Shown: one piece after another, positions 50,324 to 54,677 of the stretch
How positions within the stretch are numbered: position 1 is the first letter of the stretch
Layout of the letters: each line of letters opens with the position of its first letter
Source: Candidatus Vesicomyosocius okutanii
GTDB taxonomy: Bacteria; Pseudomonadota; Gammaproteobacteria; PS1; Pseudothioglobaceae
NCBI RefSeq assembly: GCF_000010405.1
Contig: NC_009465.1
Coordinates: forward strand, 930,001-994,000
Direction of reading: 5' to 3'
Length of the DNA stretch: 64,000 nucleotides
The notes under the pieces: model-generated
Told to the model about the DNA's origin: nothing
The model's input: the letters and a program-made list of their open reading frames with translations, nothing else
Database searches by the model: none
Position numbers and translations under genes: made by a program

Positions 50324-52657
50324 CTAGCTATTTTTAGTAACTTCTTTCTTAACTATCTTCTTTTTTAGTTTCAGTTTGCCAGAAATAGCTTTTTTACATT
50401 CTTCAAGGGTTAAATTTGCTATAGGTTTATCGCCAAAAACTTTCTTGATAGTAATATTTTTTTGGCCCTTGCCTTTCTTTTTTCCATTCCAAATATAAGG
50501 ACCAAAACGACCATTAAGGAGTTGTATATCAGAACCATCAAATATTTTTATAATACGTTCAGAGTCGAATTTTTCTTTGATTTTAATAAGTTCTAATGCT
50601 TTTTCTAGGCTGACTTCTTCTGGAATATCTTCTTTAAGCGAAACGTATTTTTTACCATATTGAATGTAGGGACCGAAACGACCGTAATTAGCTTTAATAG
50701 TGCCAAAATTATCAGTTTCACCAAGGTGACGAGGCATATTAAACAATTCTAAAGCTTCATCAAGAGTGATGCTTTCAATATCTAATAAACCTCTAAACGA
50801 GGCAAAGGTTGGTTTATCTTTATCGTCTGTATGTCCAATCTGGACAAAAGCACCATATCTACCAACACGCACGCTAACGGGTTTGTCACTTTTTGGATCC
50901 ACTCCAAGATTACGCATGCTGTGGATTTCTTCTCTAGAAATATTAACAGCATCTTCTATTTTTTGATGAAAAGGGATATAAAAATTCTTAACCACGCCTT
51001 GCCACGAAATATTTTGTGTAGCTATAGTATCAAAATCACTTTCAAGTTTAGCAGTAAATTTATAATCAATAATATTATTAAAATATTTAACTAAAAAATC
51101 AGTAAGTAAATAAGCAATATTAGTTGGAAATAATTTATTCTTTTCACCGCTTATTACTTCGCTTGGTTGTGACTGAATGACTTGATTGTCTTTAATTTCA
51201 ATCAGTTGATACTCACGTTCCACACCTCTTCCATTTTTTTTTGTAACATAATTTCTATCTTGCACTGTAGATACCATAGTAGAATATGTTGAGGGTCTGC
51301 CAATACCCATTTCTTCAATTTTTTTCACCAATGAAGCTTCGGTATAACGTGGTTTAGCACGAGAGAAGCTCTCTCTAGCTTTAAAATTAACTAAATTTAA
51401 TGCATTACCTTTGTTTAACCTTGGTAATAATTTATCTTCTGACAAGAGATAATCATAAATCCTTAAAAACCCTGGAAATACCAATACTTCTCCATTCGCT
51501 ATAAATATTTCATCAAGCCCTTCAATATTAATTTTTATTTTAGTTTTTTGTAACTGAGCATCGCTCATTTGACAAGACAAAGTACGTTTGTAAATAAGGA
51601 TATATAATTTAGCAGCTTGCTCTTCAATATCAAAAATATTAGACCTGGTTAAATCAGTTGGACGAATCGCCTCATGTGCTTCCTGTGCCCTGGATTCTTT
51701 AGACTTATATCGTCTTGTGTTATGATATTCACTACCAAATTCTCTTACAATAATTTTGTGAACTGCCTCAATTGCAGTTTCTGATAGAATAAATGAGTCA
51801 GTTCGCATATAAGTAATAAAACCCTTACGATATAAATTTTGTGCCAAGATCATGGTTTGTTTAACTGAGAAGCCTAATTTTTGAAAGGCTTCTTGTTGTA
51901 AGGTTGAAGTAATAAAAGGGGGTTTAGGAGAACGTTTAAAGGGTTTTTTTTCAATTGATGTAATAGTTAAGTTAGCCAATAAAAGTATATTAGCAAAGGC
52001 TAATACTTGCTTTTTAGATTTAAACTCTTTGCTCAATTTAACCTTAAATATCTCACCGCTTTCACTCGATAACTCTGCTTTGACTTTGTAAGTAGAATTA
52101 TCAATATGTTTGCTAATTTCTCGTTCTCTTTCTACCACAAGACGTACCACTGGAGATTGCACCCTACCAGCAGAACGTGCACCAGAAATCTTTCGCCATA
52201 AAATAGGGGATATTTCAAAACCTACTAATCTATCAATAATACGACGTGCTTGTTGAGCATCTACAAGTCGATAGTTAACTATTCTAGGCTCTGAAATAGC
52301 ATGAGTAATTGCATTTTTGGTAATTTCATGGAAAACAATTCTTGGAGTGTCTTTAGGCAAATTAAGTGCTTCTAATAAATGCCAAGCAATAGCTTCACCC
52401 TCACGATCTTCATCTGTTGCAAGATAGACTTTTTCTGCTACCTTTACAGCCTTACGTAAATCGGTAACTACCTTTTTCTTGTCTGCGGTGATTTCATAAG
52501 TAGGGGTAAAGTTATTATCAATATCTATACCCATATTTTTCTTAGGCATATCACGAATATGACCAATACTAGATTTAACGCTAAAGTCTTTACCTAAAAA
52601 TTTTTCAATAGTTTTGGCTTTGGTAGGAGACTCAACAATAACAAGATTTTTTGCCAT
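50324..52657 (-). CDS. topA: DNA topoisomerase I TopA
   Basis: Type IA topoisomerase relaxing negative supercoils. The 777-residue product has the Toprim domain with Glu9 and DEDREGEAIAW, and the active-site tyrosine Tyr283 in GFITYMRTDS. The C-terminal third lacks the cysteine zinc fingers of E. coli TopA and instead shows repeated GRYGAFVQIG, YGRFGPYIQYGKKY and NGRFGPYIWNGKKKG modules. The stop of smg overlaps its ATG by one base, giving the conserved smg-topA pair. Confidence 0.96.
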   Translation of the reverse strand: MAKNLVIVESPTKAKTIEKFLGKDFSVKSSIGHIRDMPKKNMGIDIDNNFTPTYEITADKKKVVTDLRKAVKVAEKVYLATDEDREGEAIAWHLLEALNLPKDTPRIVFHEITKNAITHAISEPRIVNYRLVDAQQARRIIDRLVGFEISPILWRKISGARSAGRVQSPVVRLVVEREREISKHIDNSTYKVKAELSSESGEIFKVKLSKEFKSKKQVLAFANILLLANLTITSIEKKPFKRSPKPPFITSTLQQEAFQKLGFSVKQTMILAQNLYRKGFITYMRTDSFILSETAIEAVHKIIVREFGSEYHNTRRYKSKESRAQEAHEAIRPTDLTRSNIFDIEEQAAKLYILIYKRTLSCQMSDAQLQKTKIKINIEGLDEIFIANGEVLVFPGFLRIYDYLLSEDKLLPRLNKGNALNLVNFKARESFSRAKPRYTEASLVKKIEEMGIGRPSTYSTMVSTVQDRNYVTKKNGRGVEREYQLIEIKDNQVIQSQPSEVISGEKNKLFPTNIAYLLTDFLVKYFNNIIDYKFTAKLESDFDTIATQNISWQGVVKNFYIPFHQKIEDAVNISREEIHSMRNLGVDPKSDKPVSVRVGRYGAFVQIGHTDDKDKPTFASFRGLLDIESITLDEALELFNMPRHLGETDNFGTIKANYGRFGPYIQYGKKYVSLKEDIPEEVSLEKALELIKIKEKFDSERIIKIFDGSDIQLLNGRFGPYIWNGKKKGKGQKNITIKKVFGDKPIANLTLEECKKAISGKLKLKKKIVKKEVTKNS

Positions 52658-53148
52658 TATTGAATGGTACGATTTTCATCAAGAAACACGATTGATTCTA
52701 GCCATTGTGTTGATGTTTCACCATCGACACTATTACCTAATACCATCATAACTACCCACTTAAGGTCTTCTAAAGAGATACTAGTATCACCCAATAACAT
52801 AATCTGATCAATAATCATTTCACGCTGATTACCATTTAGCTGACCAATATTTTCCATAAACAACAAAAATCCTCTAGATTTAGCATTGAGTTTTATTTTT
52901 TCAGTCTTAGTATAAATACGTATACTACCTTGATAAGTCGTCTTAAATGGCTTAATCTTGCCATCTTGAATGGTGGCTATCTTTTCTAGCCAACTAAGTG
53001 CTTTATCAATACGCATTGTGTCAAATCCGATGTCTGAAAGATGTGCTTTTAACTCAGTATTATCAATTTCATGAGTAGCATCTTGCTCTGCCTCTTCAAA
53101 AAGATAATCAAACATGTAAGTTAGAACATCAAGAATATTATTTGTCAT
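52657..53148 (-). CDS. smg: Smg/DUF494 family protein
   Basis: Small cytosolic protein of unknown function found between dprA and topA in many gammaproteobacteria. The 163-residue product starts MTNNILDVLTYMFDYLFEEA and contains DIGFDTMRIDKALSWLEKI and SIRIYTKTEKIKLNAKSRGFL, all typical of the family. It overlaps topA by one base. The dprA gene that normally precedes it survives here only as a pseudogene ending 11 bases upstream. Confidence 0.9.
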   Translation of the reverse strand: MTNNILDVLTYMFDYLFEEAEQDATHEIDNTELKAHLSDIGFDTMRIDKALSWLEKIATIQDGKIKPFKTTYQGSIRIYTKTEKIKLNAKSRGFLLFMENIGQLNGNQREMIIDQIMLLGDTSISLEDLKWVVMMVLGNSVDGETSTQWLESIVFLDENRTIQ

Positions 53149-53159
53149 AAAAATCTCAC

Positions 53160-53640
53160 TTAGTTAGTTACATAACCTAAATTAGTTAATTTAAACTACC
53201 TTATTTTTAGGCTTAAGGTAATCTACGAGCTAAGGTTCTTATTTATCAACCCTCACTACATCATAACTCAGACATTTTAATAGAATAGAGTCTATTTTGT
53301 CTACAATTTTTACATAAGCAAGCTCACGCCTTTAATAGGATTAGATAGTTTATCACCTTTCTTAATAAATTGATGATAGGTTATTGATCTGGATATTGAA
53401 AATACCTCTTTATCTTATATTAATAAATAATTTTTTAGTAATTATAGTACTACTTTTAATACTTACCACTACCAAAACTCAATTTACTGATATAACAATA
53501 CGATTACTAAGTAATGTGATTACTCGCTATAAGTAAAATATCAATAAACACGTTACATATTAAAATTTTAAATACTAAATATTTATACTTTACTGGATAA
53601 ATTATATCAAGCCAAATCACAAACTACAATCGTTCATCTA
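53160..53640 (-). pseudogene. dprA: Decayed dprA (DNA processing protein A)
   Basis: Directly upstream of smg, on the same strand, remnants of DprA can be read in alternating frames. From 53633: TIVVCDLA and NLSSK (the GTGLD/YPSKHK region). From 53505: NRIVISVN, stop, VLVVVSIKSSTIITKK (family RRNRIISGLS-LGVLVVEA-xxSGSLIT). From 53405: VFSISRSI then HQFIKKGDKL (family VFAIPGSI...GCHQLI). From 53310: KIDSILLKCLSYDVVRVDK. The end reads ITLSLK and FKLTNLGYVTN before the stop at 53160-53162. Several frameshifts and many stops rule out a functional product. The whole 1-kb gap is about the length of an intact dprA. Confidence 0.87.
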
Positions 53641-54185
53641 TATAATAATCGTATTTAAATCATAAATTTTATTTAATAATAAAAACCAATATAGTGTTTT
53701 AGTATCAATACTACTTACCATATCTGGATATAACCACCATACCAAACTCGAATAATTCAAAAATAAATACACAAGTATTTTAACTATCAACAATAACCAA
53801 TTATAATATTAACTATATATTCAATATCCTATCTAACATATAACAATGTTAGAGAATTTGAAATAGTTTTTAGTTATTTGAAGTATCTTTTATCCATTAA
53901 GATGAAGATGAAATACATTTTTCACCTAATTTATGTGTCTTAACTAATTATTTACCAACTTATTGCAAATATGTTTAGAATAATTTTAACAACATTCTAA
54001 TAAACAATATCACTAACAAAACTTTTATCCTAAATCAACAAATTAACCATTGTGGCATTTTTTAGATAAGAGTATAAAAACAATACAATATTATAATACT
54101 AAAGTTCTAACAAGATAACAAACACAAGGTCAGAGAATTAAATTATGGTAGAATTGCAAGATTTTATCTTATAAGATATTTCATT
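53641..54185. other. Gap between the dprA remnant and rpmH
   Basis: Very AT-rich stretch of about 545 bases. It probably includes the unrecognisable N-terminal part of dprA. TTATCC cores resembling DnaA boxes occur at about 53889 and 54025 (plus) with another at about 53595 (minus, within the dprA remnant), and the adjacent rpmH-rnpA-yidD-yidC order is typical of oriC neighbourhoods, so an origin cannot be excluded. No perfect TTATCCACA box and no dnaA were seen. Confidence 0.3.
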
Positions 54186-54326
54186 ATGAAGCAAAAGAGA
54201 ACCTTTCAACCAAGTGTTATTAAACGTAAACGTACACACGGTTTCAGATTAAGAATGAGAACAAAATCAGGTCGCGCTATTATTAATGCGCGTAGAAAAA
54301 AAAAGCGTAAGCGTCTAGCAGCTTAA
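54186..54326 (+). CDS. rpmH: 50S ribosomal protein L34
   Basis: 46-residue basic ribosomal protein, [20 protein letters not shown] to [10 protein letters not shown], matching the L34 pattern throughout. It is followed after 9 bases by rnpA, the universal rpmH-rnpA pair. It is below the usual size cut-off for gene calling. Confidence 0.96.
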
Positions 54327-54335
54327 CTAATTTAA

Positions 54336-54677
54336 GTGTCCTTTAGACTAACACGCAATTTAAGAGTTTTAAAACCATTTGACTATAAAACCATTTTTAA
54401 ACATGGAAAAATAATCAAAGGGCAATACTGGCAAGTTTTAGCACGAAAAATTGATACTCCAGAGCCTCGCCTCGGGCTTGCCATTTCAAAAAAAGTTCAT
54501 CGTCTAGCCATTGATAGAAATAAAACCAAAAGAATTGCACGCGAAACTTTTAGAACACACCAAAATGATTTAAATCATTGGGAATTTATAGTAATGGCAG
54601 AGCATTCAAAACCCGCTAAAAATTCTATAATGACTAATGATTTGCTACATTTATTCAAAAAAATAATCACCTATTAA
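54336..54677 (+). CDS. rnpA: Ribonuclease P protein component RnpA
   Basis: Protein subunit of RNase P, which trims tRNA 5' leaders. The 113-residue product starts at a GTG and has the family motif [29 protein letters not shown]. It shares one base with yidD. The RNA subunit gene rnpB is not in the window. Confidence 0.94.

What the first reader, a model, noticed from the sequence alone, without database searches (positions are those of the whole stretch)
53160..53640. Degraded dprA upstream of smg
The apparently empty kilobase between smg and rpmH contains DprA motifs on the minus strand in order but in alternating frames, ending at a stop 11 bases before smg, exactly where dprA lies in the conserved dprA-smg-topA cluster. 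DprA loads RecA on incoming single-stranded DNA in transformation. Its loss fits the reported absence of recA in vesicomyid symbionts and the end of DNA uptake in a host-restricted cell. The remnant is still recognisable, so loss is fairly recent.
Basis: partly seen in the sequence, partly recalled or inferred. Interest (0 to 1): 0.75.

Follow-up and report, generated by a model that had tools for sequence, protein, structure and literature searches.

The report
Dead dprA holding a likely promoter
A deep-sea clam symbiont carries the wreck of a DNA-uptake gene; the gene died long ago, as did its partner genes, but one short piece has stayed almost unchanged, probably because it is the on-switch for the genes next door.

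Summary
Confirmed and extended. The kilobase between smg and rpmH is a full-length dprA pseudogene (DprA codons 2-362; window 54131-53159, minus), not only 53160-53640: frameshift-aware score 228, maximum of 200 shuffles 55. Two genus members keep dprA whole, next to smg-topA.

Two corrections. (1) Loss is not recent: the window's genome and its three nearest relatives share 14 indels, and the remnant varies equally at all codon positions. (2) It does not follow recA loss: dprA, comEC and comM are broken or absent in 10 of 12 genus genomes, yet recA is whole in 5 of those 10.

New: the best-kept piece (53246-53305) is 90% identical to intact dprA (median 65%) and holds TAGACA-N18-TAAAAT, 125 nt before smg, present in 12 of 12 genus genomes. 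In 16 intact dprA genes outside the genus these codons show the gene's strongest synonymous constraint (permutation 4/5000). Best reading: dead dprA still holds the smg-topA promoter. The pseudogene is near certain; the promoter is inferred (about 0.65): no transcript data, and 5 of 18 dprA-dead genomes examined lack the exact TATTAAAAT core.

The parts
53159..54131 (-). dprA pseudogene, codons 2-362 of the intact gene, with many frameshifts and stops; no full-length DprA can be made
53156..53158 (-). original dprA stop codon (TGA), first base 10 nt before the smg ATG
   Evidence: 9 nt in intact G003 and G007
53246..53305 (-). best-preserved 60 nt of the dead gene: 0.90 identity to intact G003 over the four clade I genomes; median of such windows 0.65
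   Evidence: 4 of 2000 block permutations reach it
53274..53303 (-). promoter-like element TAGACA-N18-TAAAAT, candidate smg-topA promoter (inferred)
   Evidence: synonymous constraint at the same codons in intact genes
52657..53148 (-). smg (DUF494, PF04361), open frame
50324..52657 (-). topA, DNA topoisomerase I, open frame
54106..54175 (+). second conserved block of the gap, next to rpmH; probably the rpmH promoter region (inferred)
   Evidence: 0.85-0.87 identity to G003
54186..54326 (+). rpmH (L34), divergent neighbour that fixes the other end of the dprA site

Best explanation
The stretch is a dead, full-length dprA at its ancestral place in rpmH<>dprA-smg-topA. It died before the window's clade diversified, and comEC and comM are gone or broken in the same genomes. 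In relatives this uptake set is dead while recA is still whole, so losing uptake does not need the loss of the recombinase and, in those lineages, came first. Most of the remnant has drifted neutrally. A roughly 60-nt piece near its 3' end has not, most likely because it holds the promoter that drives smg and topA. In intact relatives that promoter lies inside the dprA reading frame, so dprA can be inactivated but not wholly erased unless another promoter arises. Shown: pseudogene, shared old lesions, neutral drift, joint absence with comEC and comM, recA retention in relatives, DNA-level constraint on the block. Inferred: that the constraint is promoter function, and that it serves smg-topA.
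For: Homology and extent. Whole gene next to smg-topA in G003 and G007. Age: 14 indels (11 frameshifting) shared by G000, G004, G005, G008, none of them at the same place and length in the six clade II genomes; pairwise differences by codon position 0.087/0.098/0.105 in the remnant, against 0.038/0.029/0.101 in topA of three of these four. Order of loss: recA full length in G001, G006, G009, G010, G011, whose dprA, comEC and comM are broken. Module, 58 genomes: dprA x comEC [[34,3],[0,21]], dprA x comM [[36,1],[0,21]], dprA x recA [[34,3],[16,5]]. Promoter piece: identity peak, 4/2000 permutations; in the four clade I genomes 0 of 12 hexamer bases and 2-3 of 18 spacer bases differ from G003; strongest synonymous constraint of dprA in 16 family genes outside the genus, 4/5000 permutations, while smg as control gives 935/2000; in other genera without whole dprA, G036 keeps the whole element 129 nt before smg, and G015 and G025 keep TATTAAAAT 129 and 156 nt before smg. 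In Neisseria meningitidis a promoter is predicted inside dprA, and TopA is still made in a dprA null mutant (PMC5817196, passages read).
Against: No transcript data. Promoter-like matches in the region are no more frequent than in shuffles (10 found, 9.4 expected). Of 18 dprA-dead genomes examined (10 in the genus, 8 outside; three more of other families were not examined), exact TATTAAAAT is kept in 13; G012, G022, G029, G033 and G017 lack it (G029 and G033 keep TTAAAAT), and in G015 and G025 the -35-like half is not recognisable by eye. In 10 dprA genes of other families (of 12 given) the constraint peak lies elsewhere, codons 324-340. Within clade II the block's conservation says little, since those copies still show the coding pattern. 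The comM control of the synonymous scan used only 3 genes.
Confidence: 0.75

Rival explanations
1. Plain pseudogene: dprA decays like any other and the 3' block is the part that has not yet been hit; no promoter.
For: One of 12 large deletions that I listed by hand falls in the last third, which is not significant (p 0.12), so survival alone needs no explanation; comEC and comM decay in the same genomes without any such reading. Five of 18 dprA-dead genomes lack the exact core.
Against: Low substitution in the block where the rest drifts, without codon periodicity in the last third; synonymous constraint on the same codons in intact genes of other genera; retention in other genera without whole dprA.
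Confidence: 0.25
2. The conserved piece acts in RNA, as part of a leader of the smg mRNA or a small RNA, rather than as a promoter.
For: DNA-level constraint alone does not distinguish the two.
Against: No Rfam match in 53000-54400 up to E 1; the conserved bases fall on two hexamer-like stretches 18 nt apart with a freer spacer.
Confidence: 0.12
3. One reading: dprA was lost recently and as a consequence of losing recA.
For: In this genome recA is reduced to a match that ends at residue 97, and clade I is known to have lost it by a large deletion (PMC3202245, section 7 read).
Against: Five relatives have dead dprA and whole recA; clade I lesions are shared and old. For clade I itself the order of the two losses is not resolved.
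Confidence: 0.08
4. Sequencing error, or a functional gene read by programmed frameshifts.
For: None found.
Against: Four assemblies share 14 indels; 17 apparent frameshifts and 13 stops; flat codon-position divergence.
Confidence: 0.01

Closest known systems
DprA (Smf), DNA_processg_A PF02481 with winged helix PF17782
   Same: Order of conserved residues over codons 2-362 and place before smg-topA
   Different: No open frame left; not a protein
Remnants of recA, mutY and NER genes in vesicomyid symbionts (PMC3202245, PMC5310779; abstracts, one section and passages read)
   Same: Stepwise decay of DNA-handling genes, further advanced in clade I than in clade II
   Different: The word dprA occurs in neither paper; here the uptake genes are dead even where recA is whole
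dprA-smg-topA operon of Neisseria meningitidis (PMC5817196, passages read)
   Same: Same gene order; a promoter predicted inside dprA; TopA made without DprA
   Different: There dprA is intact and the predicted promoter is mid-gene; here the candidate lies 125 nt before smg in a dead gene
Loss of ComEC in obligate endosymbionts (PMC6299819, passages), against its retention in Endomicrobium (PMC8809381, passages)
   Same: Host-bound bacteria losing, or in Endomicrobium keeping, the uptake genes
   Different: Here the decay is seen at several stages within one genus

Membership tests
dprA pseudogene (ortholog of DprA, PF02481) | Sequence similarity to DprA beyond chance | tested here: met
   Score 228, max of 200 shuffles 55
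dprA pseudogene (ortholog of DprA, PF02481) | Same genomic place as the functional ortholog | tested here: met
   rpmH|dprA-smg-topA in G003; dprA-smg-topA in G007, where rpmH was not found in the stretch fetched
dprA pseudogene (ortholog of DprA, PF02481) | Reading frame destroyed | tested here: met
   Frameshifts and stops; longest open stretch of the gap on that strand 56 codons
dprA pseudogene (ortholog of DprA, PF02481) | No purifying selection on codons | tested here: met
   0.087/0.098/0.105 by codon position within clade I
Functional DprA | Intact Rossmann-type domain (RecA loading and ssDNA binding are established knowledge) | tested here: not met
   No PF02481 match in the genome; frame destroyed
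Sigma-70 type promoter | -35 and -10 hexamers at 16-18 nt | tested here: met
   TAGACA-N18-TAAAAT, 10 of 12 consensus bases; weak evidence alone, since shuffles give as many sites
Sigma-70 type promoter | Hexamers conserved above the background | tested here: met
   Within the genus and in 16 family genes; not kept in 5 of 18 dprA-dead genomes
Sigma-70 type promoter | Transcription start and promoter activity | not testable with these tools
   No transcript or reporter data
Natural transformation system in this genome | comEC, dprA, comM and recA present | tested here: not met
   All four absent or remnants in G000

The most novel reading that the evidence does not exclude
Across this bacterial family the 3' coding end of dprA doubles as the promoter of smg-topA. 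The gene for DNA uptake can therefore die but is not easily deleted: its wreck is held in place as the switch of the topoisomerase I gene. In addition, the uptake genes die while the recombinase gene is still whole, so the recombination reported in clam symbionts does not run through the known dprA-comEC route.
Probability: 0.6. Interest if true: 0.6.

Novelty: new variant of a known kind. Interest (0 to 1): 0.52.

Why it matters
Gene decay in host-bound bacteria is usually read as free erosion. Here a dead gene carries a measurable, localised constraint, seen in two different data sets: low substitution in the remnant, and synonymous constraint in living copies. That gives a testable reason why some pseudogenes persist. 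The gradient of decay also orders events: in five genomes dprA, comEC and comM are broken while recA still stands. This bears on how clam symbionts recombine: PMC7473567 (passages read) reports modest rates in two vesicomyid symbiont populations, by its text apparently those of C. magnifica and C. fausta. In the ten genomes of this genus with broken dprA, among them the one whose size fits the C. magnifica symbiont (G002), the known uptake route is not available.

Tried and rejected
Naming the hosts of the two genomes with whole dprA (Tsphm01, CSMAG_640) failed. Type IV pilus and ComEA searches did not help: PilQ has no match over its cut-off in any of the 12 genus genomes, PilT none over its cut-off, ComEA none at E 0.001, and that includes G003. 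So whether G003 itself can take up DNA is open, and its whole dprA/comEC/comM set cannot be equated with competence. ComF: 0 of 12 over the cut-off, but an unbroken full-length match of 77-102 bits stands in G003, G007, G006 and G011, and broken pieces in G009, G001 and G002. So a comF-like gene is still whole in two genomes with broken dprA; I did not pursue it.

A comEC remnant in clade I is not distinguishable from shuffles in G000 (score 60; 4 of 100 shuffles reach it) and G004 (10 of 100), but above all 100 in G005 and G008. For G000 I therefore claim a shrunken comEC site (618 bp between the coaBC and dnaE matches, against 2642 bp in G003), not a recognisable remnant.

Single or multiple loss: a 20-bp dprA deletion first seemed shared by five clade II genomes, but on inspection G001 and G010 keep the sequence; it stands in G011 and G009 and probably G002. 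The 11-gene protein tree puts G003 (whole dprA) inside the set and rejects monophyly of the 10 broken genomes (p-AU 0.012), which would mean several losses. But the group was tested after a first tree had been seen, the genes come from one region, AT-rich long branches are present, and the six clade II genomes with G002 are also rejected as one clade (p 0.020); without G002 they are not (p 0.118). I leave this open. In one search one outgroup (G014) was left out for lack of data. The comM control of the synonymous scan ended with 3 genes and is uninformative.

Full report
WHERE THIS IS. The window is bases 930001-994000 of a single 1,022,154-base contig. The size fits Ca. Vesicomyosocius okutanii (the exact name is recalled; papers read give 1.02 Mb). 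The gap between smg (52657-53148, minus) and rpmH (54186-54326, plus) is 1037 bases at 23% G+C.

THE OBSERVATION. A frameshift-aware local alignment (my own script) of the gap against the intact DprA of relative G003 gives 228; the reverse complement gives 36, the reversed sequence 33, and 200 dinucleotide shuffles have mean 31.4 and max 55. Frameshift penalties 6 and 12 also leave all 200 shuffles below the real score. So the remnant is full length: codons 2-362, window 54131 down to 53159, 144 of 306 aligned residues identical, with about 17 frameshifts, 13 stops and gaps. In the whole window this is the best minus-strand match (223; best plus-strand match 55). A whole dprA lies directly before smg and topA in G003 and G007; the stop begins 9 bases before smg there and 10 here. 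In G003 the other neighbour is rpmH, as here. In G007 rpmH was not found in the stretch fetched, and the neighbour looks like pyrB by eye. PF02481 has no match in the window's genome, while it rings in 11 of 14 control genomes.

RELATIVES. The genus holds 12 genomes here. PF02481 is whole only in G003 and G007. In the other ten (G000, G001, G002, G004, G005, G006, G008, G009, G010, G011) the place before smg holds a remnant with frameshifts or large deletions. I call G000, G004, G005 and G008 clade I by their tree position (100% support) and the other six clade II. For G002 this follows the published placement of R. magnifica (abstract), which my tree did not reproduce.

AGE. The four clade I remnants share 14 indels, 11 of them frameshifting; none occurs at the same place and length in clade II. 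Pairwise differences within clade I are flat over the former codon positions: 0.087, 0.098, 0.105. In topA (three of the four genomes) they are 0.038, 0.029, 0.101, with 0.122 at fourfold sites; in smg (four genomes) 0.021, 0.004, 0.079. Against G003 the window's copy is flat too (0.320, 0.300, 0.325), whereas clade II remnants still show the coding pattern (for example G011 0.102, 0.068, 0.261). So the window's dprA died before clade I diversified and, by inference, has drifted for most of its separate history. It is recognisable, but not recently dead.

THE REST OF THE UPTAKE SET. comEC lies between coaBC and dnaE. That pair flanks the site in 12 of 12 genus genomes; the space between the two matches is 2642 and 2653 bp in G003 and G007 with comEC whole, 798-2209 bp in clade II and 618-875 bp in clade I. 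comEC remnants carry frameshifts or large deletions in all six clade II genomes. In clade I a remnant is above all 100 shuffles in G005 and G008 but not in G000 and G004. comM is over its curated cut-off only in G003 and G007 of the genus; remnants are found in the six clade II genomes and, above all 60 shuffles each, in all four clade I genomes. recA is full length in G001, G003, G006, G007, G009, G010 and G011; in G000 only a match ending at residue 97 is left (score 174, reversed-protein control 42), in line with the published large deletion (PMC3202245, section 7 read). So in five genomes dprA, comEC and comM are all broken while recA is whole.

OVER 58 GENOMES (own and relatives). Presence was typed by hand. 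Genes split over contigs, and the comM of G027 in two overlapping frames, were counted as present. dprA x comEC is [[34,3],[0,21]], dprA x comM [[36,1],[0,21]], dprA x recA [[34,3],[16,5]]. Exceptions with dprA present: comEC missing in G028 (86% complete), G034 (97%) and G041 (62%); comM missing in G041; recA missing in G028, G037 (91%) and G038 (99%). The genomes are related, so I do not take the Fisher values printed there at face value. In the 25 same-family genomes outside the genus dprA and comM agree in 25 of 25, and all 8 without a whole dprA keep recA.

THE PIECE THAT DID NOT DRIFT. Sliding 60-nt windows of the four clade I remnants against intact G003 have a median identity of 0.65. 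The best is 53246-53305 at 0.90 (block permutation of columns: 4 of 2000 reach it); a second conserved area, 54106-54175, borders rpmH. The last third of the remnant is less diverged than the rest (within clade I 0.072 against 0.107), without codon periodicity. The block holds TAGACA-N18-TAAAAT, 125 nt before the smg ATG. The element, with 9 or 10 of 12 consensus bases, is at the homologous place in 12 of 12 genus genomes, 125-157 nt before smg. In clade I no hexamer base differs from G003, while 2-3 of 18 spacer bases do. A consensus scan alone finds as many sites as shuffles (10 against 9.4), so the case rests on conservation.

TEST IN LIVING GENES. In 16 intact dprA genes of the family, genus left out, I compared synonymous codon agreement with the expectation from each gene's codon use in 9-codon windows. 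The strongest of 346 windows starts at codon 307 and covers the -10-like half (excess 0.465, mean 0.094, sd 0.099); the next five overlap it. Column permutation reaches this maximum in 4 of 5000. The same scan on 17 smg genes shows nothing (935 of 2000). The bases TATTAAAAT are fixed in 16 of 16, including three third positions. In 10 dprA genes of other families of the class (12 given, 10 usable) the peak lies at codons 324-340 instead, so this element looks like a family trait.

OTHER GENOMES WITHOUT WHOLE dprA. Upstream of smg, G036 keeps TAGACA-N18-TAAAAT at 129 nt; G015 and G025, with little else of dprA (scores 71 and 63, reversed-protein controls 33 and 30), keep TATTAAAAT at 129 and 156 nt. 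Against the reading: G012, G022, G029, G033 and G017 have no TATTAAAAT (G029 and G033 keep TTAAAAT). With the ten of the genus that is 13 of 18 with the exact core; three further genomes without dprA (G043, G054, G056, other families) were not examined. The expected number of TATTAAAAT in a 70-nt stretch is about 0.005 at the window's own frequency.

HOW IT MOST LIKELY WORKS. Shown: dead gene, old loss in clade I, joint absence with comEC and comM, whole recA in five genomes that lack them, local DNA-level constraint. Inferred: the constrained piece is the promoter of smg-topA, buried in dprA's coding end. Precedent: in Neisseria meningitidis a promoter is predicted inside dprA, the three genes are co-transcribed, and TopA is made in a dprA null mutant (PMC5817196, passages read). 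That paper calls topA essential there; if it is essential here too (inference), deletions that remove the promoter are not tolerated unless another arises, as may have happened in the G012 group.

LITERATURE. Searches of the held library: dprA with Vesicomyosocius gives 0 papers. In one search, 64 papers hold at least 3 of the terms comEC, dprA, Calyptogena, vesicomyid, Vesicomyosocius, Bathymodiolus; 40 were listed, and none of those 40 holds dprA or comEC. 'dprA' does not occur in PMC3202245, PMC2642828, PMC7473567, PMC7826175, PMC5310779 or PMC3704533 (text searches, not whole readings). Subscription papers and most preprints are not covered. PMC7473567 reports modest recombination in two vesicomyid symbionts, apparently of C. 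magnifica and C. fausta, and suggests RecA-independent routes (passages). The present data add that the dprA-comEC route is not available in any of the ten genomes with broken dprA.

LIMITS. Hosts of G003 and G007 are unknown. One or several losses within the genus is unsettled: the tree favours several, shared lesions conflict with it, and the tree has known weaknesses. No PilQ or PilT passes its cut-off in G003, so a whole dprA/comEC/comM set is not proof of competence.

Noticed in passing
G011:C1:1475364-1475829 (locus L146): smg itself appears broken in G011: two overlapping pieces, one with 2 TGA codons inside, while topA downstream is open (787 codons).
   Followed up: no
L158, L155, L154 (comEC); L165, L163, L162 (comM); L070, L068, L063 (dprA): Lesions shared by lineages that the tree does not group: dprA 20-bp deletion in G011, G009 and probably G002; comM 1-base insertion near base 35 in the same three; comEC 18-bp deletion in G011 and G002. 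Recurrent repeat-mediated deletion, recombination or a wrong tree.
   Followed up: partly
L060, L216, L217, L218 upstream of smg: In the four dprA-less G012-group genomes GATGTGGATAATG (GATGTGCATAATG in L218) stands 165-174 nt before smg; by eye it matches the codons around the -35-like half of the element.
   Followed up: partly
dprA genes of other class members, 10 usable of loci L001, L005, L006, L011, L021, L022, L024-L028, L030: Synonymous constraint peaks at codons 324-340, nearer the dprA end: possibly another buried element before smg.
   Followed up: no
L207 around 5738 (G000:C1:763737): recA stub beside ribD: the match ends at residue 97, as expected from the published deletion in clade I.
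   Followed up: partly
L062, L063, L066, L068, L069, L070, dprA 3' end in clade II: Large deletions in clade II dprA spare the last third (G006 keeps codons 252-362 without frameshift or stop); over all clades 1 of 12 large deletions listed by hand falls there, p 0.12.
   Followed up: partly
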